A stretch of DNA of 45,159 nucleotides from Vicingaceae bacterium. Its GTDB lineage: Bacteria; Bacteroidota; Bacteroidia; Flavobacteriales_E; Vicingaceae. The stretch is taken from contig JARGOE010000006.1 in the NCBI GenBank assembly GCA_029210015.1, forward strand, positions 1 through 45,159, in the 5' to 3' direction. Positions 5,319-38,203 of this stretch are shown in pieces (position 1 is the first letter of the stretch; each line of letters opens with the position of its first letter). The notes beneath the pieces are model-generated. The model worked only from the letters and a program-made list of their open reading frames with translations. It searched no databases and was not told the origin of the DNA. Both the position numbers and the translations under genes were made by a program.

Positions 5319-6293
5319 TTGAAAAAAAGTATAGCTACAATATTGAAAATTGTAATTCCATTAGGGATAGGGGTATACTTAACATGGTTTTTTATTTCAA
5401 GATTATCTGAAGTAGAATTAACAAACCTTAAAGAGGCTTTTTTACAAGCAGATTATATTTATTTGTCTTTAGGAATGTTGGTTATGTTGGTAAGCCATAT
5501 GAGTAGATCTTACCGCTGGAAGTATATGTTGGAGCCACTGGGTTATAAGCCTACTTTTTCTAAGATGTATCACAGTGTAATGATAGGTTACTTAATTAAT
5601 TTAACCATTCCTCGTTCAGGAGAAGTAGCTAGAGCTGGGTATTATGCGAAATACGAGAAAGATGCATCATTTGATAAGGTATTTGGGACAATTATAGTTG
5701 AGCGTATAATTGACATGTTGATGCTCGGAATAGTTATGATGGTTACATTTTACTTACAAAAAGATATTGAAGCTTTTAATCAAATTTCAGAAAGCAGCAA
5801 ATCAGGGTCAAGCATTCCTTCTTGGGTTTATTTTGTTATTGGAGGATTAATTTTGACAGGAGGAATAATGGTTTTTGTAATTGAGAAATTGAGAAATAAA
5901 GTACTGGGAATACTAAAGGGAATATTTGAAGGGGTTAAAACAATTTTAAAATTAAAACAAAGAGGAGCATATATTTTTCATACGTTGCTAATATGGTTGT
6001 GTTATTTGGCTTGTATTTGGATTTGTTCTTTTGCTTTGCCTGAAACATCTAACTTGCCCATAGCAGCAGTTTTTGCTGCATTTACAGTTGGAGGAATTGC
6101 AATATCTGCTACACCTGGAGGGATTGGTTTATACCCTATAATGGTTTCGGCAGTTTTAGGTAATTTGTATGGTATTGAAAATGCAGAATCATTTGGTTTG
6201 TTAGCATGGACATTTTTAACTGCTTTTACAATTTTAACAGGCTTAATTTCACTTTTTGCATTGCCTTTTACTAACCCAGCTAAATTAATATGA
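5319..6293 (+). CDS. Lysylphosphatidylglycerol synthase TM region / YbhN family membrane protein
   Basis: A 324-residue inner-membrane protein with about eight hydrophobic segments, resembling the flippase-like transmembrane domain of MprF (UPF0104/YbhN). Seen in the sequence: an early SHMSRSYRWKYML segment, IPRSGEVARAGYYA, and ATPGGIGLYP near the C-terminus, all recurrent in the family. There is no C-terminal aminoacyl-transferase domain, so lipid lysylation is not expected; a role in lipid or glycolipid movement is a family-level guess. The start is TTG at 5319, five bases after panD stops; no in-frame ATG occurs until well inside the first membrane segments, and MKKS fits homologues. The stop overlaps the next start by 4 bp (6290-6293), indicating translational coupling. 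Confidence 0.85.
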   Translation: MKKSIATILKIVIPLGIGVYLTWFFISRLSEVELTNLKEAFLQADYIYLSLGMLVMLVSHMSRSYRWKYMLEPLGYKPTFSKMYHSVMIGYLINLTIPRSGEVARAGYYAKYEKDASFDKVFGTIIVERIIDMLMLGIVMMVTFYLQKDIEAFNQISESSKSGSSIPSWVYFVIGGLILTGGIMVFVIEKLRNKVLGILKGIFEGVKTILKLKQRGAYIFHTLLIWLCYLACIWICSFALPETSNLPIAAVFAAFTVGGIAISATPGGIGLYPIMVSAVLGNLYGIENAESFGLLAWTFLTAFTILTGLISLFALPFTNPAKLI

Positions 6294-6802
6294 GTAAAAT
6301 AATATTCATAAAAAGTAAAATTATTTCTGATATTGATTCAGTAGTGGAAAAATGGAAAACTCAAAATCAATCCATTGTTTTTACTAATGGGTGTTTTGAT
6401 ATTTTGCATCGTGGTCATATAGAATACTTAGCCCAAACTTCTGATTTTGCAGACAAATTGATTGTTGCTGTTAACGCAGACAGTTCAGTAAAAAAATTAA
6501 ACAAGGGAGATGGCAGGCCAATTCAAGATGAAAACTCAAGAGCGTTAATTATTGCTGCATTAGATTTTGTAGATGCAGTTGTGATTTTTAAAGATGACAC
6601 CCCTTATGAGATAATAAACTCAATTAAACCTAACGTATTGGTAAAGGGTGGAGATTATGATGCTAATTGTATAGATAAAACTGACAAAAAATATATTGTT
6701 GGTTCTGATGTGGTTAAATCAAATGGCGGAAAAGTTGAGGTAATTCAGTTTGTTGAAGGTTATTCTACTAGTAAAATTGAAGAAAAGATTAAAAAAGCTT
6801 AA
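6290..6802 (+). CDS. rfaE2: D-glycero-beta-D-manno-heptose 1-phosphate adenylyltransferase-like (RfaE2)
   Basis: A 170-residue cytidylyltransferase-fold protein. FTNGCFDILHRGHIEYL carries the HxGH nucleotide-binding motif, and later NVLVKGGDYD and GYSTSKI match the RfaE/HldE C-terminal domain that adenylates heptose-1-phosphate for LPS core synthesis. The kinase half (RfaE1) is not in this window, so the protein is the stand-alone form. Start overlaps the membrane-protein stop by 4 bp. The substrate is inferred from the family; glycerol-3-phosphate cytidylyltransferase-like activity is a less likely alternative. Confidence 0.88.
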   Translation: MSKIIFIKSKIISDIDSVVEKWKTQNQSIVFTNGCFDILHRGHIEYLAQTSDFADKLIVAVNADSSVKKLNKGDGRPIQDENSRALIIAALDFVDAVVIFKDDTPYEIINSIKPNVLVKGGDYDANCIDKTDKKYIVGSDVVKSNGGKVEVIQFVEGYSTSKIEEKIKKA

Positions 6803-6805
6803 AAA

Positions 6806-7327
6806 CTATTGCTCTTCTTTGTACCATCCAGAATACATCACATAGCTCTCAGCAATTCGATTTATTTCTCCTTCTAGTAATTCTGGACTAATTTCTTTAA
6901 CTTTTTTAGCGGGAACCCCTGCATAAATACAACCACCCTCTACTTTTGTTCCTTGTAAAACTACTGCTCCAGCTGCAATAATAGTATTGCTTTCTATGGT
7001 TACATCATCCATTACGATTGCTCCCATACCAATCAATACATTGTCTTTAATTGTGCAGCCGTGAACTAGAGCATTATGTCCTACAGAAACATTGTTGCCA
7101 ATATTCGTAGGGTGCTTTTTATAAGTAGCATGAACTACAGCTCCATCTTGTATGTTTACTTTGTTACCCATTTTAATGTAGTGAACATCCCCTCTTAAAA
7201 CAGCACTAAACCAAATGCTGCAATCATTCCCCATTATAACATCGCCAATAATAGTAGCGTTTTCTGCCAAGTAACAGTTGCTGCCAAAGGCAGGGGTTTT
7301 GCCTAAAAGTGTTTTAATTAATGTCAT
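6806..7327 (-). CDS. Gamma-carbonic anhydrase family hexapeptide-repeat protein
   Basis: A 173-residue left-handed beta-helix protein of the YrdA/PaaY/CaiE-like gamma carbonic anhydrase family. Hexapeptide turns run through most of the length (for example IIGDVIMGNDCSIWFSAVLR). Candidate zinc ligands are the His in VVHAT and the two in SVGHNALVHG, in the family arrangement, and the C-terminal YAGVPAKKVKE segment is characteristic. Whether it really hydrates CO2 cannot be read from sequence; many family members are of unknown activity. It converges on rfaE2 with only 3 bp between stop codons, with no terminator hairpin in between. Confidence 0.9.
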   Translation of the reverse strand: MTLIKTLLGKTPAFGSNCYLAENATIIGDVIMGNDCSIWFSAVLRGDVHYIKMGNKVNIQDGAVVHATYKKHPTNIGNNVSVGHNALVHGCTIKDNVLIGMGAIVMDDVTIESNTIIAAGAVVLQGTKVEGGCIYAGVPAKKVKEISPELLEGEINRIAESYVMYSGWYKEEQ

Positions 7328-7343
7328 TATAAATTTTTTAATT

Positions 7344-7351
7344 CAAAAATA
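7344..7351 (-). promoter_or_regulatory. Candidate -7 box for the gamma-carbonic anhydrase gene
   Basis: TATTTTTG on the minus strand matches TAnnTTTG and lies 16 nt before the ATG at 7327. No good -33 TTG is seen at 19-21 nt upstream, so this is a one-box prediction. Confidence 0.45.
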
Positions 7352-7469
7352 TGCAACTTAATTGCTAAAATATCTATCTTAGGAATGGAATTATTAATTA
7401 AAAAGAAGGCTGTTACAGTTTGATATTAAATATCTTTAACCTAAATTGGGGGGCACTAACGTACTTTTT

Positions 7470-10358
7470 ATGAAAATATCACGAATATTATTTCTTAGCA
7501 TATTTGCATTTTTATTAACGATAAATGATTTATATTCTGCTACAATTGTTGTTGGAACAGGAACTGCAACTAATGCAACTGGTAGCTATCCAGCACCTTA
7601 CGGCAACTTTTTTTGGGGAGCAAAGCATCAATTTTTAATTACGGCAGCAGAATTGAATACTGCAGGAATGACTGCTGGAAATATTAACAACATGGCATTT
7701 GTTGTTGATCAAGCCAATGGAATCCCATTAACTGGCTTTACAATTTCAATGAAGAACACTCTTACCACAAATTTAGTAGCATTTGAAACAGGTTTGACTA
7801 CTGTATTAAACCCATTAACTTATACTGAAAATGCTGGATTGAACACTCACGTTTTTTCATCACCTTTTTATTGGGATGGTGTTTCAAACTTATTAATAGA
7901 AACATGTTTTAATAATACTAGCTGGACTGCTAATGCGACTACTTTTTTAACTACCACCTCTCATAACAGCTCTGTTTTTTACCGGCAAGATGCTTCAGGA
8001 GTTTGTGGTTCAAACTTTACTACTGGCTTTGTCAATGAAAGACCTAACATGATTTTTGATTGGAATTCTGCTGCAGTTCCACCTGTTTCAAGTTTTATGG
8101 CTAACACAACAAGCACATGTTCTGGGGTTGTTAATTTTACAGATCTATCAACAAATAATCCAACAAGCTGGAGCTGGAATTTTGGAGATGGTTCACCGCT
8201 ATTAACCAACCAAAACCCTTCTCACACATATATTGCTTCTGGGAATTATACTGTTACTTTAATTGCTTGTAATGCTTTTGGGTGTGATACTACAATATTT
8301 ACTAATTACATAAATGTTAACCTTTCTGCTCCAACACCTGTTGCATCATCGTGTACCCCTAACACACTAACATATTGTTGTGGTTTTGGAATGACAAACG
8401 TAACTTTTAACTCTATAAATAATAATTCAGGCGATGGAGTTGATGGTTATAGTGATTTCACCTGTTTTCAAACAACAGTTTTAGAAGGACAGAGCTATAC
8501 GTTATCTATTCAAACATCGGCAGCATCAACTCAAAACTATGCTGCTTGGATAGATTTTAATAATGATGGAGTGCTAAATGATGTTACTGAAAGAGTTTTT
8601 ACAGCTTCATCGCTTAATAATACATCTGGAAACATTAATATTCCTGCAGGTGCAGTATTAGGAACACCATTAAGAATGAGAGTATCTTCCGATTATGATT
8701 TTAGCGCTGCACCAACACCTTGTGCAGATTTAGATTTTGGTCAAGCAGAAGATTATACAATTATTATAATTGCTAATCCTAATCCTCCAACTCCAATCTT
8801 TAGTGCATCTCCTACTACCTCTTGCAGTGGTACGGTTTGTTTTACTGATTTATCTTTAAATGCACCAACAGGTTGGTTGTGGGATTTTGGTGATGGTAAC
8901 ACTTCTTTTCAGCAGAGCCCTTGCCACACATATGCTGCTGATGGTGTTTACACGATAAAGCTAACAGCAACTAATGCTAATGGAGGAAATATAGACTCTA
9001 TTGTTAATTACGTGACAATAAATACTGCTGGACAATTGTTAGCTGCATCATGTTCGCCAGTAACATCTGCATATTGTTGTGATTACGGAGTTTATCAAGT
9101 AGATTTTAATACTATTAGTAACCCTTCTTTGGATGGTGTTGAAGGGTATCAAGATTATTCATGTACTTATTCAACTACTGTTACAGAGGGGACAATACAT
9201 TCAATAACTATTAAAACAGGTATAAATAATGCTCAAGACACAAGAGTATGGATTGATTTTAATAATGATGGGTCATTTAACAATACTAATGAATTAGTTA
9301 TGGATGCGCCAAATTCATATAATCCTTCGGTTAATTATCTTATTCCTTCTGGGGCAGTTTTAAATACTGCATTAAGAATGAGAGTTTCATCTGATGTTGT
9401 TGGACCAGCTCAAAATGCTTGTGATGCTAACGACTTTGGACAAACTGAAGATTATGGCTTGATAATAGAACCAAACACTTTGCCTCCAAATGGAAATTTT
9501 ATAGCGTCTATAACATCTACATGTTCTGATACGATATGCTTTACAGATTTATCCTCAAGCTTGCCAACAGGGTGGATTTGGTACTTTGGAGATGGTGATA
9601 CTAGCACATTACAAAACCCATGTCATTTTTATTCAGCCCCAGGAAATTATACTGTTAGTTTGGTTACAACTAATGCTTTTGGTCAAGATTCTGCAGTTAA
9701 ATTTAATTATATAAATGTAAATTGTACAAATCTAACTATGCCAACAAGCGCTCCTGCTATAAATGTTACTGCGTGTAGTGGAACTTTATTTGATGACGGG
9801 GGATCTTTTAATAATTATTCAAATAATACAGATGGAGTATTTACAATTCAACCAACTGGAGCAACGCAAGTAGATATTAATTTTGTATCCTTTGATTTTA
9901 CTACAAATCAGGGAGACACTCTTCTAGTGTATGATGGCCCTAATACTTCAAGCCCATTGTTGGGAGCTTTTCAAGGAAACTTTTTACCACCTCCCTTAAG
10001 TTCTTCAGGGGGAAGCATTACTATAAGGCAGGTTTCTAATAATTTTGCAACTGACCCCGGTTTTGAATTAAACTGGACATGTACAACTACAGGAATTAAT
10101 GATTTACTTGATAATAGTGAGGAATTCACAGTTTATCCTAACCCAGCTTCTGACATAGTAAATATTAGGGCTGAAAATTCTTCAGTTATTAATGAAATAA
10201 TCATTTTCAATACAATGGGGCAGATAGTGTTATCTGACAATTCTTTAAATAGAAGTAGTCAGGTACAAATAGATGTCTCTAGATTAAAAGATGGGCTTTA
10301 TTTTTTAAATATAAAAAGTGAGAAAGGGGTTACAACTAAAAAAATCAACATTAAATGA
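7470..10358 (+). CDS. Secreted PKD/GEVED/CUB-like protein with T9SS type A sorting domain
   Basis: A 962-residue secreted protein. A signal peptide ends near LYSA. An N-terminal beta domain (about 25-200) precedes alternating modules: PKD near 205-280 (SWSWNFGDG), GEVED near 289-435 (WIDFNNDG then DFGQAEDY), PKD near 438-518, a second GEVED near 523-667, PKD near 670-750, and a CUB-like domain near 763-872 (DTLLVYDGPN). The last 80 residues begin FTVYPNPASD and end KKINIK, a type A T9SS sorting domain, so export through T9SS and attachment or release at the surface is expected. ATG at 7470 gives the signal peptide; an in-frame TTG at 7446 is less likely. The stop overlaps the next gene's ATG by 4 bp. 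No catalytic domain was seen; an adhesive or structural role is inferred. Confidence 0.85.
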   Translation: MKISRILFLSIFAFLLTINDLYSATIVVGTGTATNATGSYPAPYGNFFWGAKHQFLITAAELNTAGMTAGNINNMAFVVDQANGIPLTGFTISMKNTLTTNLVAFETGLTTVLNPLTYTENAGLNTHVFSSPFYWDGVSNLLIETCFNNTSWTANATTFLTTTSHNSSVFYRQDASGVCGSNFTTGFVNERPNMIFDWNSAAVPPVSSFMANTTSTCSGVVNFTDLSTNNPTSWSWNFGDGSPLLTNQNPSHTYIASGNYTVTLIACNAFGCDTTIFTNYINVNLSAPTPVASSCTPNTLTYCCGFGMTNVTFNSINNNSGDGVDGYSDFTCFQTTVLEGQSYTLSIQTSAASTQNYAAWIDFNNDGVLNDVTERVFTASSLNNTSGNINIPAGAVLGTPLRMRVSSDYDFSAAPTPCADLDFGQAEDYTIIIIANPNPPTPIFSASPTTSCSGTVCFTDLSLNAPTGWLWDFGDGNTSFQQSPCHTYAADGVYTIKLTATNANGGNIDSIVNYVTINTAGQLLAASCSPVTSAYCCDYGVYQVDFNTISNPSLDGVEGYQDYSCTYSTTVTEGTIHSITIKTGINNAQDTRVWIDFNNDGSFNNTNELVMDAPNSYNPSVNYLIPSGAVLNTALRMRVSSDVVGPAQNACDANDFGQTEDYGLIIEPNTLPPNGNFIASITSTCSDTICFTDLSSSLPTGWIWYFGDGDTSTLQNPCHFYSAPGNYTVSLVTTNAFGQDSAVKFNYINVNCTNLTMPTSAPAINVTACSGTLFDDGGSFNNYSNNTDGVFTIQPTGATQVDINFVSFDFTTNQGDTLLVYDGPNTSSPLLGAFQGNFLPPPLSSSGGSITIRQVSNNFATDPGFELNWTCTTTGINDLLDNSEEFTVYPNPASDIVNIRAENSSVINEIIIFNTMGQIVLSDNSLNRSSQVQIDVSRLKDGLYFLNIKSEKGVTTKKINIK

Positions 10359-32153: not shown

Positions 32154-33578
32154 ATGTTAATATATTACAAAAAATACCTTTTTTTAGTGATGCTGTTTTC
32201 TACAGTTTCAAGTTTTACTGCTCAAAATTATTTTGATTCATTAACTACTTACATTCAACCATTATCAAATGAAAAAAAGGTTGAACTAATTAAGGCTATC
32301 CCCTTTGACAAAATGAATAGCAATACTAGTGCAGCTATTCATTTGTATCAAAAAGCATTAGATTATAGTGCTGATAATCAAGAACAACAAGCAATTATTA
32401 ATGAAAAACTAGCTTTAGCATATTACTATAAAGGCGATTACGATTTGTCTGTACAAACCAGTTTAGCGGCAATTAATCAATACGAAAAATTAAATAACCA
32501 ATTAAAAGTAGGTTCAGTATATGCTAGTTTGGGTTATCAAATGAAACGAAGAAACCTACCTAAGGCTTTTCAATATATGCGAAAAGGTATTTTTCAGTTA
32601 GAGCAAATCGATGATCAAAAAGCTCTATCAGCAGCATACAATAATTTTGGGGTGTTACACGAAATGGATAATGATATCGATAGTGCATTATATTATTATC
32701 AAAAAGGCCTAAAAATAGTAGAAGAGATAAATGATAGTATTGGGATTCCTTATAGTTTAAACAATATTGCTGGAGCATATGTGATTCAGGGGAACTACAA
32801 AAAAGCATTACCTTATTATGAAAAAGCATTTTCTATTCGAAAAAAACGTAATGATTTAAATGGAATGGCTGAAAATTATACAGCCTATGGAGATTTTTAC
32901 TTCAAACAAGAACTTTATCCGCAAGCCATTTCAAACTATATAGCTGCAGATAGTATCACTCAACAAATAAAATACACTTACTTACAAAAAGTATGTTCTG
33001 AGCAATTAGCCTTATGCTATTCATTTATCAATGAATATAAAAGTGCTTTAAACTATCAAAAAAAAGCTGTTGAGCTAAATGACATATTACTAAATGAAAG
33101 TAGCAATAAATCAATTGCTGAATTAGAAACTCAATTTGAAACTGAAAAAAAAGAGAAACAAATTATAGAGCAAAATGTAGTAATTGCCAACAAAGAATAT
33201 GAAATAAAACAAAGGAGTTATTTTATGTATGCTCTAATATCTATTGGAGTATTACTAATTATTGTTGGCTTTTTTATCATTAAAGGAATTCGATTTAAGC
33301 AGCAAAAATTAATAGAATCAAATAGATTAAAAGATGAGATAGCTAAAATCAAAACTCAAGAAAAGTTAAATGAAGAGCGTGTTAGAATTTCACGTGATTT
33401 GCACGATAACATTGGAGCTCAATTAACATTTATCATTTCATCAATTGATAATATGAGTTTCTTTATGAAGGAAACTAACAATGAGTTAAAGACAAAGCTT
33501 CAAGAGCTCAATGAGTTTTCTAGAAAGGCTATAAAAGAGTTAAGAGGCACAATTAACACCTTAAATAAGAGTAAGTGA
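32154..33578 (+). CDS. TPR membrane protein with histidine kinase DHp (HisKA_3) domain but no ATPase domain
   Basis: A 474-residue protein: signal sequence (ending near FTAQ), TPR-like helices through about residue 310, a coiled-coil segment, a membrane helix (about 357-377, ALISIGVLLIIVGFF), then a HisKA_3 dimerisation/phosphotransfer domain with RVRISRDLHDNIGAQL; His417 is the phosphoacceptor. The protein ends at LRGTINTLNKSK, right where the HATPase domain of the neighbouring paralogue starts, so it has no N, G1 or G2 boxes and cannot phosphorylate itself alone. It overlaps that complete paralogue by 4 bp. It may form mixed dimers with it and be phosphorylated in trans. ATG at 32154 directly follows a terminator hairpin. 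Confidence 0.85.
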   Translation: MLIYYKKYLFLVMLFSTVSSFTAQNYFDSLTTYIQPLSNEKKVELIKAIPFDKMNSNTSAAIHLYQKALDYSADNQEQQAIINEKLALAYYYKGDYDLSVQTSLAAINQYEKLNNQLKVGSVYASLGYQMKRRNLPKAFQYMRKGIFQLEQIDDQKALSAAYNNFGVLHEMDNDIDSALYYYQKGLKIVEEINDSIGIPYSLNNIAGAYVIQGNYKKALPYYEKAFSIRKKRNDLNGMAENYTAYGDFYFKQELYPQAISNYIAADSITQQIKYTYLQKVCSEQLALCYSFINEYKSALNYQKKAVELNDILLNESSNKSIAELETQFETEKKEKQIIEQNVVIANKEYEIKQRSYFMYALISIGVLLIIVGFFIIKGIRFKQQKLIESNRLKDEIAKIKTQEKLNEERVRISRDLHDNIGAQLTFIISSIDNMSFFMKETNNELKTKLQELNEFSRKAIKELRGTINTLNKSK

Positions 33579-35590
33579 AAAGGATAATACATATCATTTT
33601 ATGTTTGTTCTTTGTCACTTCTGTTGAGGCGAATGAAGACTCTCTAATTGTTTTTAGTTTGTTAGAACAAGCTAAACAAACTGGTAATTCCGACTCGTCA
33701 AAAAGCTATGCTGATGAAGCCATGAATTATGCTAAAAAGGAAAAATATTTAGATGGAATATTAACCGTTGCAAAACATTTTGGGAATCAATATGCTCAAA
33801 CAGGAAAGTTAGAAAAATCGATTGAGTTATATAGGAATATTATTAATGGCAATTCTTTTAACCGAAAACAACTTAGTACAGCTTACAATCAATTAGGTAT
33901 CTACCATGTTTATATGGGGCATTATGATAGTACTGAAGTTTATTTTCTGAAAGCCTTAGATATGAGAACACAACTTAACGATAGTGTTGGAATGGGGGCT
34001 TCTTTAAATAATTTAGGGAATGTGGTTATGAGTAAAGGTGATTATGATAAGGCCACCACATATTACATTAAATCATTAAGAATTAGAGAGCAAATTAAAG
34101 ATACTGCAGGGATTGCTTCAAGTACAAATAATTTGGGAATGATTTTTTACAAACAACAAAAATATAGTCAAGCAATTAAATATTATCATCAAGCTCTTAG
34201 TATTAATCAATATCAAAATTTACTTGATAAGGAAATTTTAATTCTAATAAATTTAGGAAATATATATGATGAGATTTTGGAATTAGACTCATCTATGTTT
34301 TATTATCAAAAAGCAACCAATAAAGCAGAACAATTTGGTGATTTAAGGCTAATCTCAATGGCTTATGGAAATTTAGGAGTTACTCAGCATCAGTTAAAAA
34401 ATTATACTGCTGCTGAAAAGTATATGAGAAAGGCCTTAAAAATTAGAATTGAATCAAATGATTTAGAAGGACAATCTATTTTGTATAACAACTTAGGAGC
34501 CGTATTTGTTGCAACAAAAAAGTATAATGAAGCTGTAAATTATTTTAACAAGAGTTTAGTTATCTCTAAAGAGATTGGGTATTTAGAGACCACTAGAGAT
34601 AATTATTTAGGGCTTTCAGATGCTTATGAAAAATTGAATCAATTTGAAAAAGCATACTTAGCACATGAGCAATATAACTTAGTTAAAGACTCAATGTTAA
34701 ATGAAGCAACTAATGAGCAAATAGCATTGTTAAATACTCAATATGAAACAGAAAAAAAGGAAAAAGAAATTGCTGGGCAACAACTAGAAATTTCTGAACA
34801 ACAACTACAAGTTAAACAACGTAACTACCTAATAGGTGGATTAGGGCTACTAGTAATATTTATTGTTGTTATTGGAGGGTTTATATATCGATACCAAACT
34901 CAAAAGCAATTGCGCTTACAGGAAGAAAATTTACTAAAAGATCAAATAGCTCAAGTAAGTATTCAAAACAAACTACATCAAGAGAGGTTAAAAATTTCGA
35001 GCAATTTGCACGATAACATTGGTTCACAATTGGCATTTATTATTTCCTCAGTAGATAACATGCAACATTTGTTTAAAACGACTGACGATAAATTAAATAG
35101 TAAGCTCACGGATATCTCTAACTTTACTCGTACTACTATTACTCAATTAAGAGACACCATTTGGGCATTAAATAAAGATGAAATTTCATTTGAAGACTTA
35201 AAAGCTAGATTGTTTAATTATATTGAAAACGCAAAACTTGCTCAAGAACAAACTAGTTTTAGTTTTAATGTAAACATGAGCTCTAAATTTCAACTAAACT
35301 CTATTCAGGGAGTTAGTATTTATCGTATAGTTCAGGAAGCGATTAATAACGCTATGAAATATGCTGCAGCGACAAATGTTTCTCTTAATATTTCTGAAAC
35401 AGATGATGTATTAATAATCAGTATAAAAGATGATGGTATTGGTTTTAATATTGCTGAAATTGATTTAGGAAATGGGTTAGAAAATATGCGAAACAGAGCA
35501 TTAAGTATTAATGCAGAATTTAATATCCATTCATCTATAAATGAAGGAACAGAAATTATAATGGAAATTAATAAGAACTCTTTAGGCTAA
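33575..35590 (+). CDS. TPR sensor histidine kinase (HisKA_3 + HATPase)
   Basis: A 671-residue kinase: signal sequence (ending about VEA), TPR repeats to about residue 380, coiled coil, membrane helix (about 418-438), HisKA_3 domain with NLHDNIGSQL (His479), and a complete ATPase domain with N-box QEAINNAMKYA (587-597), G1 DDGIGF and G2 GNGLENM. The input is periplasmic TPRs, so it may sense a protein or envelope signal. Starts with GTG at 33575, overlapping the DHp-only paralogue by 4 bp. A NarL-type regulator at 37553-38203 is the closest candidate partner. Converges on ispG with a 4-bp overlap of coding ends. Confidence 0.92.
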   Translation: MKRIIHIILCLFFVTSVEANEDSLIVFSLLEQAKQTGNSDSSKSYADEAMNYAKKEKYLDGILTVAKHFGNQYAQTGKLEKSIELYRNIINGNSFNRKQLSTAYNQLGIYHVYMGHYDSTEVYFLKALDMRTQLNDSVGMGASLNNLGNVVMSKGDYDKATTYYIKSLRIREQIKDTAGIASSTNNLGMIFYKQQKYSQAIKYYHQALSINQYQNLLDKEILILINLGNIYDEILELDSSMFYYQKATNKAEQFGDLRLISMAYGNLGVTQHQLKNYTAAEKYMRKALKIRIESNDLEGQSILYNNLGAVFVATKKYNEAVNYFNKSLVISKEIGYLETTRDNYLGLSDAYEKLNQFEKAYLAHEQYNLVKDSMLNEATNEQIALLNTQYETEKKEKEIAGQQLEISEQQLQVKQRNYLIGGLGLLVIFIVVIGGFIYRYQTQKQLRLQEENLLKDQIAQVSIQNKLHQERLKISSNLHDNIGSQLAFIISSVDNMQHLFKTTDDKLNSKLTDISNFTRTTITQLRDTIWALNKDEISFEDLKARLFNYIENAKLAQEQTSFSFNVNMSSKFQLNSIQGVSIYRIVQEAINNAMKYAAATNVSLNISETDDVLIISIKDDGIGFNIAEIDLGNGLENMRNRALSINAEFNIHSSINEGTEIIMEINKNSLG

Positions 35591-37512
35591 GCTTCTACCC
35601 AGTCACCATGAATTTTTATTAAATTGATTAACTCATTAACAGCATCTTTTTCAGGTATGTTGCGTTGTACAACTTCTTTTTCTTTGTATAAAGTAATCTT
35701 ACCTACTCCTGTGCCTACATAACCATAATCAGCATCTGCCATTTCTCCAGGGCCATTTACAATACAACCCATTATGCCAATTTTTACACCTTTTAAATGA
35801 GAAGTTACTGCTCGAATTTTAGCAGTAGTTTCTTGTAAATCAAACAATGTTCGTCCGCAACTTGGGCAAGAAATATATTCTGTTTTAGAGATTCGTGTTC
35901 GTGTGGCTTGCAAAATTCCAAATGCAGTTTCATTTATCATTTTATCGCTACCGCAATTTTCTGCAGCAATAAAAACACCGTCTCCTAAGCCATCTACTAA
36001 TAATGCTCCCATATCTGTAGAAGCATGTAATTGTAATTGCTCTTGTGTTAAATCGCCATACGCTCTTCCAATAACAACAGGCGTATTACAATTATTATTC
36101 ATAAGCTCTGTAAACAGTTTGCGCTGCTCAGCCATACCATGATTGTTATAAGTATCAATCATTATAACAGCTGTTTTATCTGATTTTAGCTTAAGTATCA
36201 ACTCTTCTGATAATTCTGAAAGTGTAACATAAACCATGTTCATTACCTCAGATAAATCATTGGCAGCTAAATATTCTTTAGCACTTAAAAAAGGATAGGC
36301 ATTTGATTTATTGCTTAGCCAAGTTTTATAATTATAAATAATTCCTAAGGTACCAGGTACCTCAAAATCTATTGTTTTATTTCCTAAAAAGACATAATCA
36401 CAAGCCATATCAGAAATATTCCATTTGTCTAATGGAACGGAATAGTTATATCCTAAGGCAAAAAATGATGCTGGAGTAACCTTCTCTTTCAAACAGAAAT
36501 CATGAATAACTACAGGCACATTTTTACCTCCAATATTCATTACTTCATTAGTTGTTCTTCGATTATATTCAAATGAATTAATAGGGTTATTAGTTATTGC
36601 TTCTATTGGTTCGTGTTCAGCTCTGATATCATATCGTTTCACTAATTCTTGAGCCACTGGAATTTCAAATTCTGGTTCTTCAGTTAAAGAGACTCTTATG
36701 GTATCCCCCAAACCATCTTCTAATAAAGTTCCAATTCCAACAGCCGATTTTATTCTTCCATCTTCAGCTTCACCCGCTTCGGTTACACCAAGGTGCAAAG
36801 GATAGTTCATGTCTTCTGCCATCATATTATTAACTAATAAACGATAAGCTTGAACCACCACTAAGGTGTTACTTGCTTTCATAGAAAGAACAATATCATG
36901 ATAATCAAACTCTCTACAAATACGTAAAAATTCCATAGCAGACTCTACCATTCCTAGAGGAGAATCACCATATCGGCTCATTATTCTATCTGACAATGAA
37001 CCATGGTTTGTTCCAATTCGCATTGCCGTTTTATGTTCTTTACAAATCTTAACTAATGGAATAAATCGTTCTCTAATTCTTTCTAATTCTGACTGGTAAG
37101 ATTCATCAGTATATTCTATTTCTTCGAATTTCTTTTTATCAGCATAATTACCAGGATTTACCCTTACTTTTTCAACGATAGTTGCTGCAATTTCTGCAGC
37201 ATTTGGGGTAAAGTGGATATCAGCAACAAGAGGGGTATTGTAACCTCTTTTAACTAATTCTGCTTTTATGTTAGCTAAATTTTCTGCTTCCTTTTTACTT
37301 GGCGCTGTAATTCTAACTATTTCGCAACCAGCATCAATCATTCTAATAGATTGTTCTACTGTTCCGATAGTATCCATGGTGTCAGTTGTTGTCATGGATT
37401 GAACCCTTATTGGGTTATCTCCTCCAATTCCAACACTCCCAATCATTACTTCGCGAGTTTTAAAGCGTTGATATTGGGTTAGACTATTACAGTATTTATT
37501 TTCAGAACTCAT
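35587..37512 (-). CDS. ispG: 4-hydroxy-3-methylbut-2-en-1-yl diphosphate synthase, long form
   Basis: Iron-sulfur enzyme of the MEP pathway making HMBPP. The 641-residue length is the large form with an inserted middle domain found in Bacteroidota, Chlamydiae and plants, against about 370 for the E. coli type. Start GSVGIGGDNPIRVQSMTTT is diagnostic. Cluster ligands are the two Cys of SCPSCGRT (about 549 and 552) and the Cys of GCIVNGPGE (about 582). Partner IspD is encoded at 28621. Last gene of the rnr - regulator - ispG minus-strand group, but with its own -7 box. Confidence 0.96.
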   Translation of the reverse strand: MSSENKYCNSLTQYQRFKTREVMIGSVGIGGDNPIRVQSMTTTDTMDTIGTVEQSIRMIDAGCEIVRITAPSKKEAENLANIKAELVKRGYNTPLVADIHFTPNAAEIAATIVEKVRVNPGNYADKKKFEEIEYTDESYQSELERIRERFIPLVKICKEHKTAMRIGTNHGSLSDRIMSRYGDSPLGMVESAMEFLRICREFDYHDIVLSMKASNTLVVVQAYRLLVNNMMAEDMNYPLHLGVTEAGEAEDGRIKSAVGIGTLLEDGLGDTIRVSLTEEPEFEIPVAQELVKRYDIRAEHEPIEAITNNPINSFEYNRRTTNEVMNIGGKNVPVVIHDFCLKEKVTPASFFALGYNYSVPLDKWNISDMACDYVFLGNKTIDFEVPGTLGIIYNYKTWLSNKSNAYPFLSAKEYLAANDLSEVMNMVYVTLSELSEELILKLKSDKTAVIMIDTYNNHGMAEQRKLFTELMNNNCNTPVVIGRAYGDLTQEQLQLHASTDMGALLVDGLGDGVFIAAENCGSDKMINETAFGILQATRTRISKTEYISCPSCGRTLFDLQETTAKIRAVTSHLKGVKIGIMGCIVNGPGEMADADYGYVGTGVGKITLYKEKEVVQRNIPEKDAVNELINLIKIHGDWVEA

Positions 37513-37552: not shown

Positions 37553-38203
37553 TTATAAAATATTATGTTTCATTGCTTTTTGTACCGCTTCCATTTTGTT
37601 GTGTACCTGTAGCTTTTTATAAATATTTTCGATGTGTTTACGAACAGTTGAAGGGCTTATAATTAAGTTCTCAGCTATTTGTTGGTAGTTCAAGCCTTTT
37701 GATAAATGCTCCAATATTTCAGTCTCTCTTTTACTTAGTTTTATTTCCTCTAACTGAACTTTATCAGAAGTCATTTTTTCTGGGAAACGTAAAATATTTA
37801 AAGTTTTTAATGCTACTGATGGAGTCATTGCTGCACCACCTTCTAACACATCTGTAATGGCTTTGTGCAGTTCTGGTGGATTTGTTTCTTTTAGTAAATA
37901 CCCATCTGCACCAGCTTGTATGGCGTTAAAAATATTATCATCATCATCAAATACCGTTAGCATTAAAATTTTAATGTGTGGGTACTTATTTTTCACATAT
38001 TCAGTAGTTGCAATACCATCTTTTTCTGGCATTTGTATATCCATTAAAATGACATCTACATTGTGGTCTTGCTCTAATTTCCCGATAAACTCATTACCGT
38101 TAGCACCTCTAAATTTGAATTTTAAATCGTCAAAAAAAGAAATTTTCTCTTCAACTGCTTTGGCTAAAAAGCCATTATCTTCTGCTACTGCTATCTTTAT
38201 CAT
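37553..38203 (-). CDS. NarL/LuxR-family response regulator
   Basis: A 216-residue regulator: receiver domain (residues 1-120) with acidic pair Glu8-Asp9, phosphoacceptor Asp55 in VILMDIQMPEKDG, switch Thr in MLTVFDDDD and the Lys in LLKE; then a LuxR-type helix-turn-helix (about 150-205, LSKRETEILEHLSKG, then SPSTVRKHIENIYKKL). Likely partner of the HisKA_3 kinases at 32154-35590, since this regulator class pairs with that kinase class; ispG lies between. 40 bp upstream of ispG and 68 bp downstream of rnr. Confidence 0.94.
   Translation of the reverse strand: MIKIAVAEDNGFLAKAVEEKISFFDDLKFKFRGANGNEFIGKLEQDHNVDVILMDIQMPEKDGIATTEYVKNKYPHIKILMLTVFDDDDNIFNAIQAGADGYLLKETNPPELHKAITDVLEGGAAMTPSVALKTLNILRFPEKMTSDKVQLEEIKLSKRETEILEHLSKGLNYQQIAENLIISPSTVRKHIENIYKKLQVHNKMEAVQKAMKHNIL

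What the first reader, a model, noticed from the sequence alone, without database searches (positions are those of the whole stretch)
32154..35590. Kinase gene with phosphoacceptor domain but no ATPase domain, overlapping its complete paralogue
The first protein has the same layout as the second (signal, TPRs, coiled coil, membrane helix, HisKA_3 with an intact H-box, His417) yet stops exactly at the DHp/HATPase boundary. The second protein is complete. Both have their own export signal, so this is not one gene broken by a frameshift. A 4-bp overlap suggests coupled, matched synthesis. The simplest model is mixed dimers in which the complete kinase phosphorylates His417 of the other, giving two different TPR sensor inputs to one output. 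I know of no named system of this form.
Basis: partly seen in the sequence, partly recalled or inferred. Interest (0 to 1): 0.72.

Follow-up and report, generated by a model that had tools for sequence, protein, structure and literature searches.

The report
Two-gene kinase with divided catalytic labour
Two overlapping bacterial genes appear to make the two unequal halves of one membrane signalling enzyme: a short half that carries the phosphate-accepting histidine but has no ATP-using domain, and a long half that has the ATP-using domain and a worn phosphate site.

Summary
Gene 1 (32154-33578) encodes TPR/TM/HisKA_3 and stops two residues past the DHp; gene 2 (33575-35590) is complete; they overlap by 4 bp. 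The same short+long pair, with the same end and a 4-bp overlap, occurs in two other species of the genus, so it is neither sequencing error nor recent decay. Short-gene omega is 0.10 between G000 and G003 (dS saturated). In relatives the orthologous kinase is a single complete gene.

New here is complementary wear. The three short proteins keep the H-box but have lost conserved residues of DHp helix 2 (RDTIW to R[GVA]TIN). The three long partners keep helix 2 and the ATPase motifs, but have lost the acid two residues before the His, and in one species the His itself is Asn. There only the short protein has the canonical phosphoacceptor. In a heterodimer the kept parts fall in one composite active site.

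Best reading: a heterodimeric ('split') HisKA_3 kinase that phosphorylates the short protein's His, for the NarL-type regulator nearby. Precedents exist (FasB/FasC; CheA3/CheA4), so this is a new variant of a known kind. Dimerisation and phosphorylation are untested.

The parts
32154..33578 (+). Short subunit gene: signal (by eye), TPR sensor A, TM, complete DHp (HisKA_3), no CA domain; 474 aa
33210..33299 (+). Transmembrane segment of the short subunit (residues 353-382)
   Evidence: hydropathy
33375..33569 (+). HisKA_3 (DHp) of the short subunit, residues 408-472; H-box intact (RISRDLHDNIG)
33402..33404 (+). Codon of His417, inferred phosphoacceptor; conserved in 3 of 3 short proteins
33543..33557 (+). 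DHp helix 2 end of the short subunit, RGTIN where 11 of 11 close single kinases and 3 of 3 long partners have RDTIW
33575..33578 (+). GTGA overlap of stop and next start; a 4-bp overlap in all three species
33575..35590 (+). Long subunit gene: signal (by eye), TPR sensor B, TM, DHp, HATPase_c; 671 aa
34817..34900 (+). Transmembrane segment of the long subunit (residues 415-442)
   Evidence: hydropathy
34982..35179 (+). HisKA_3 of the long subunit (residues 470-535); worn H-box (KISSNLHDNIG: Ser-Asn where 10 of 11 close singles have Arg-Asp and one Gly-Asp)
35009..35011 (+). Codon of His479 of the long subunit (kept here and in G003, Asn in G006)
35315..35572 (+). HATPase_c (CA domain) of the long subunit, residues 581-666; QEAINN, DDGIGF and GNGLENM motifs present
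37553..38203 (-). NarL-type response regulator (Response_reg + GerE), inferred output; directly downstream of the pair in the two other species, here one gene away on the other strand

Best explanation
The two genes encode the unequal subunits of one heterodimeric membrane histidine kinase of the HisKA_3 (DesK-like) class. Overlapping reading frames give coupled synthesis (inferred). The subunits pair through coiled coil, TM and DHp of equal length (inferred). The CA domain of the long subunit binds ATP and phosphorylates His417 of the short subunit (inferred). The phosphate passes to the nearby NarL-type regulator, which docks on helix 1 of the short subunit with helix 2 of the long one (inferred from DesK:DesR). 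Two different periplasmic TPR sensors therefore control one output. The mirror-image site (helix 1 of the long subunit with helix 2 of the short one) is no longer needed and is decaying. Shown here: conservation of the pair and the overlap in three species, purifying selection on the short gene, the complementary pattern of residue loss, His to Asn in one long subunit, regulator linkage. Not shown: heterodimerisation, phosphorylation, the signals.
For: (1) Three species of the genus carry short+long with the same end and a 4-bp overlap; the short proteins form one group in the sensor tree (96/95) and the DHp tree (97/100), so the truncation most likely arose once and was kept. (2) Short gene G000-G003: dN 0.208, dS 2.09, omega 0.10; its DHp is 92% identical (omega 0.03) against 74% for the long partner's DHp and 66% for its own sensor. 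(3) Complementary loss: of columns invariant in 11 close singles, helix 1 is changed in at least one species in 1 of 20 columns for shorts and 6 of 20 for longs; helix 2 in 7 of 14 for shorts and 0 of 14 for longs (Fisher p 0.005; regions chosen after seeing the alignment, which replaces the count that took a gap column as a change). (4) In G006 the long protein reads LNENIG (His to Asn, next Asp to Glu) while its short partner keeps LHDNIG. (5) N, G1 and G2 motifs of the CA are kept in 3 of 3 longs. (6) The regulator is directly downstream in two pairs and across one gene in the window. (7) In DesK:DesR the regulator contacts mainly helix 1 of one protomer and, less, helix 2' of the other (PMC5231405 passages), so only a heterodimer puts the kept halves into one site.
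Against: No interaction or phosphorylation data. In the window and G003 the long subunit keeps its His, so a long homodimer could still be active. The His loss rests on one gene in one MAG. Of the 6 changed helix-1 columns of the longs only one (the acid two before His) is changed in all three; four are changes of G006 alone and one of the window alone; asking for change in all three species gives Fisher p 0.25. With G006 the short DHp is only 64% identical (against 56% and 60% for the long DHp), so its extra constraint is clear only for G000-G003. dS is saturated. Only 3 of 46 held genomes of the family have the pair, and 20 of 20 candidate regions taken from a 395-genome class sample had a CA in frame, so no independent recurrence was found. 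Helix-2 loss in the short protein may simply follow from losing its own CA. The basic residue three before His is not general in HisKA_3 (26 of 55), though the acid two before it is (53 of 55).
Confidence: 0.7

Rival explanations
1. The short gene is a decaying remnant: a kinase that lost its CA domain when its paralogue arrived, still translated but without function.
For: The CA is absent, and in G006 the short gene lies where relatives have a complete kinase (beside the same 340-aa gene).
Against: Intact frame in three species at saturated dS, omega 0.10 for G000-G003, same end and 4-bp overlap. The only other CA-less protein in the 55-protein census (L215) stops 46 residues after the DHp and is unlike this.
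Confidence: 0.06
2. The short protein is a regulator, not a substrate: it caps the complete kinase as an inactive partner (RetS-like) or acts as a phosphatase of the regulator, while the long homodimer is the kinase.
For: Inhibition by a partner kinase is known for GacS-RetS (mentioned in PMC12675982). The window and G003 long proteins keep His.
Against: In G006 the long protein lacks the canonical His, so without the short His these two proteins have no acceptor. The H-box acid is lost in 3 of 3 longs and kept in 3 of 3 shorts, the reverse of what a mere inhibitor needs.
Confidence: 0.16
3. Both forms act as homodimers in separate pathways, the short one phosphorylated by some other kinase or serving as a phosphate sink.
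For: Each has its own sensor and TM; a DHp alone could dimerise (general knowledge).
Against: No other HisKA_3 match was found in the held genome (2 hits, both in this pair; genome 82% complete). Overlapping genes and complementary wear argue for joint action.
Confidence: 0.08

Closest known systems
FasB/FasC/FasA of Streptococcus (PMC12675982; passages read, part of the abstract among them)
   Same: Two sensor-kinase genes and one regulator in an operon. Two-hybrid shows hetero- but not homodimers. FasC's kinase domain is dispensable and its His (H246) is needed; FasB is proposed to supply the kinase.
   Different: FasC still has a (pseudo)kinase domain, and FasB has a His proposed but not proven as a site. 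Six TM segments each instead of TPR sensors. Here the CA is physically absent and one long partner has lost the acceptor.
CheA3/CheA4 of Rhodobacter sphaeroides, 'split kinase' (PMC3591291; passages read); a split CheA-like pair Hik36-Hik43 is also described in Synechocystis (PMC7656254; passages read)
   Same: One protein with the phosphoacceptor and no catalytic domain, another with the catalytic domain; CheA3 is phosphorylated only when both are present.
   Different: Chemotaxis-type kinases with a separate P1/HPt domain; CheA4 lacks P1 altogether. Here both subunits are membrane sensors and share a DHp.
DesK (HisKA_3 kinase; PDB 7ssj, 3gig, 3gie)
   Same: DHp+CA of the long protein matches DesK chains by sequence (E 2e-9 to 3e-8; the best PDB match was the CA of VraS, 9e-15); same regulator docking assumed.
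   Different: DesK is studied as a dimer of identical, complete chains.
HK1/HK2/TcrA (Rv0600c/Rv0601c/Rv0602c) of Mycobacterium tuberculosis (recalled; two searches gave no primary paper, none read)
   Same: As recalled, a kinase divided over two neighbouring genes, one with the acceptor, one with the ATPase.
   Different: As recalled, a single kinase cut in two, not two sensors with duplicated DHp.

Membership tests
HisKA_3 histidine kinases (DesK class) | HisKA_3 DHp with LHDxxG H-box | tested here: met
   Both proteins over the Pfam cut-off; both LHDNIG
HisKA_3 histidine kinases (DesK class) | HATPase_c domain in the same chain | tested here: not met
   Met by the long protein, not by the short one. 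The short protein alone is therefore not filed as a histidine kinase
Split / heterodimeric histidine kinase | Acceptor-bearing protein without CA, encoded with a CA-bearing partner | tested here: met
   same in L033/L094 and L034/L095
Split / heterodimeric histidine kinase | CA-bearing partner lacks a usable acceptor | tested here: inconclusive
   His absent in 1 of 3 (G006); acid two before it lost in 3 of 3; His still present in the window
Split / heterodimeric histidine kinase | The two proteins form a complex and neither autophosphorylates alone | not testable with these tools
   needs purified proteins; the structure tool takes one chain
Split / heterodimeric histidine kinase | Linked response regulator | tested here: met
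   NarL-type regulator directly downstream in two species, one gene away in the window

The most novel reading that the evidence does not exclude
An obligate heterodimeric HisKA_3 sensor kinase with exactly one working composite site, made of helix 1 of a CA-less subunit and helix 2 plus CA of its paralogue. Two sensors that serve alone on single kinases in relatives were merged into one dual-input kinase, and the three species show stages of decay of the unused half-site, ending in loss of the redundant His.
Probability: 0.53. Interest if true: 0.75.

Novelty: new variant of a known kind. Interest (0 to 1): 0.62.

Why it matters
Sensor kinases are usually taken to be symmetric homodimers, and reports of two kinases forming a heterodimer are called rare (PMC12675982). 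Here one catalytic half-site of a membrane two-sensor kinase seems to have been worn away piece by piece. That gives a system for asking whether one active site per dimer is enough, how helix contacts enforce heterodimerisation, and how two inputs are combined. It also offers a simple signature (CA-less DHp gene overlapping a complete paralogue with a worn H-box) to search for further hidden heterodimers.

Tried and rejected
Sequencing or assembly error: rejected for the truncation, three genomes carry it. One gene broken by a frameshift: rejected; the short gene's own frame meets further stops at once and gene 2 has its own N-terminus.

Independent recurrences: looked for in the family (46 genomes), the order (the same 46 genomes) and a class sample (395 genomes; listing capped). 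From I chose 20 places by eye (short frames, near relatives, a tandem pair); 20 of 20 regions have DHp and CA in one frame, so none was found. Of the HisKA_3 hits listed I fetched the 55 with frames under 520 aa other than the three shorts; longer frames were not checked there. One search counted 83 DHp rows, but these include edge fragments of the same genes, so I do not use it as a denominator; its two rows without His are both the G006 long gene, and one other kinase (L075) also lacks both H-box charges.

Rows dropped: G012 from the sensor tree, G028 from the column counts. One search counted one gap column as a change in the shorts; one search corrects it.

Hetero- versus homodimer modelling was not possible: the structure tool takes one chain. 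The Foldseek search of the short model returned TPR and TPR-like proteins and no kinase in the 50 rows shown of 1231. YN00 failed in 29 of 30 comparisons (the one value: omega 0.305, coil+TM of the long gene, G000-G006); NG86 dS was not computable for any comparison with G006, nor for the long coil+TM of G000-G003. Paper searches used all ten; others returned nothing. Passages of PMC4558063 held nothing on CA-less kinases.

Full report
What is there. In the window, gene 1 (32154-33578, +, 474 aa) has an N-terminal export signal (read by eye), TPR repeats, a transmembrane segment and HisKA_3 (408-472), and ends at residue 474 with no HATPase domain. Gene 2 (33575-35590, +, 671 aa, GTG start) has the same layout plus HATPase_c (581-666). 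They overlap by GTGA. The two proteins are 31% identical over 455 columns. The short gene's frame meets further stops at once. The AlphaFold2 model of the short protein shows one long helix from coil to DHp helix 1 (315-437), a loop, and helix 2 (443-472), so the DHp looks complete; confidence there is moderate (pLDDT 60-71). The model of the long protein has low confidence in coil, TM and DHp, and a recognisable CA. The window lies in a 2.43-Mb, 82% complete genome of 121 contigs in which these are the only two HisKA_3 hits. The NarL-type regulator P0003 lies one gene away on the other strand.

Relatives. The same pair is found in two other genomes of the genus: L033/L094 (G003, titled Vicingaceae bacterium; short protein 73-74% identical) and L034/L095 (G006, titled Flavobacteriales bacterium HKST-UBA98; 59%). 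Both have the short gene ending at the same place, a 4-bp overlap, a complete second kinase, and the regulator directly downstream. In the other close members the kinase is a single complete gene: 11 close singles plus a more distant one in G028. A regulator of the same type lies next to 10 of the 11; the eleventh (L080, G007) ends at a contig edge, and L089 (G028) shows none. In G006 the short gene lies downstream of the same 340-aa gene (pheS by eye) as 4 of the 11 singles (G030, G036, G017, G012), so there the short gene looks like the positional heir of the single kinase and the long gene like the newcomer. Sensor A of the shorts groups with six singles (100/99). Sensor B of the longs groups with three singles of another genus (G061, G016, G029; 100/99) (G012 left out). 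Thus each sensor type also occurs alone.

Selection. Between G000 and G003, omega is 0.100 for the short gene (dN 0.208, dS 2.09) and 0.093 for the long gene (NG86). In that pair the short DHp is 92% identical, the long DHp 74%, the short sensor 66%, the regulator 88%. With G006 the contrast is weaker: short DHp 64% in both comparisons, long DHp 56% and 60%, short sensor 58% and 55%. dS is saturated and could not be computed with G006. The short proteins form one group in the sensor tree (96/95) and the DHp tree (97/100). This is long-kept function, not decay.

Division of labour. Against columns invariant in the 11 close singles, the three short proteins keep (R/K)DLHDNIG, but their second helix reads SR-x-AIKELR(G/V/A)TIN(T/E)LN where singles and longs read TITQLRDTIWALN. 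The three longs keep helix 2 and the CA motifs (QEAINN, DDGIGF, G(N/D)GLENM), but have SN, NS or TT where the singles have (R/G)D before the His, and in G006 the His is Asn and the next Asp is Glu. By column, changed in at least one species: helix 1 in 1 of 20 for shorts and 6 of 20 for longs; helix 2 in 7 of 14 and 0 of 14; Fisher p 0.005. Changed in all three species: 1 and 1, 6 and 0; p 0.25. The regions were chosen after seeing the alignment, columns are not independent, and four of the six long changes are of G006 alone. In the 55-protein census the His is present in 55 of 55 and the acid two before it in 53 of 55, but the basic residue three before it in only 26 of 55.

Mechanism. In DesK:DesR the regulator docks mainly on helix 1 of one protomer, with minor contacts to helix 2 of the other (PMC5231405, passages). 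A short-long dimer has two such composite sites. One is built of the two kept halves and carries His417; the other is built of the two worn halves. Neither homodimer has a site with both kept halves. This is what a heterodimer with one working site predicts. In G006 only the short-long combination joins a canonical acceptor His and an ATPase. The equal length of coil, TM and DHp (159 residues, no gap, 6 of 6) suits parallel pairing, though 10 of 12 singles share that length. Complex formation, phosphorylation and signals are inferred.

Compared with the known. Split kinases are a named kind: CheA3/CheA4, and PMC3591291 reports from a database that 1556 of 42417 HisKA proteins (3.66%) lack HATPase, so a CA-less DHp protein as such is not rare (passages). 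FasB/FasC is a proposed heterodimer in which one partner's kinase domain is dispensable and its His is needed (PMC12675982, passages). The M. tuberculosis HK1/HK2 pair is recalled only. What I did not find in the ten paper searches is a HisKA_3 TPR pair with a missing CA in one chain and a worn acceptor site in the other. The library holds open-licence papers only.

Verdict. Observation confirmed. Interpretation largely right but not unprecedented. New variant of a known kind, confidence 0.70 in the heterodimer reading. Gene names ispG and pheS are by eye, from no call.

Noticed in passing
L091 4429-6384 / 6381-8318 and L092 3932-5911 / 5908-7851: Two other genomes of the family have tandem complete HisKA_3 kinases of another subfamily, also overlapping by 4 bp; both copies keep LHDG and the CA motifs. 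Possible heterodimers before any decay.
   Followed up: partly
L084, L085, L086 versus L083 and L087: Within one genus (g4) closely similar DHp-CA halves carry three different sensor halves, so the sensor part seems to be exchanged as a module.
   Followed up: partly
L163 4466-6355 / 6364-8466: A tandem pair of complete HisKA_3 kinases 8 bp apart in a more distant genome (G285), H-boxes LHDNIGSQL and LHDNIGSKL.
   Followed up: no
L215 1078-1833: A REC-HisKA_3 protein that stops 46 residues after the DHp; may be decay or an error, unlike the short genes.
   Followed up: partly
window 35587-37512 and 37553-38203 (-): In the window an inverted gene (IspG by eye) separates the kinase pair from its presumed regulator, while in G003 and G006 the regulator follows directly: a local rearrangement.
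   Followed up: no
L088 5135-8242: In G012 (same genus) a single kinase beside the 340-aa gene is 1035 aa long and its region before the DHp does not align with the TPR kinases: another sensor swap.
   Followed up: no
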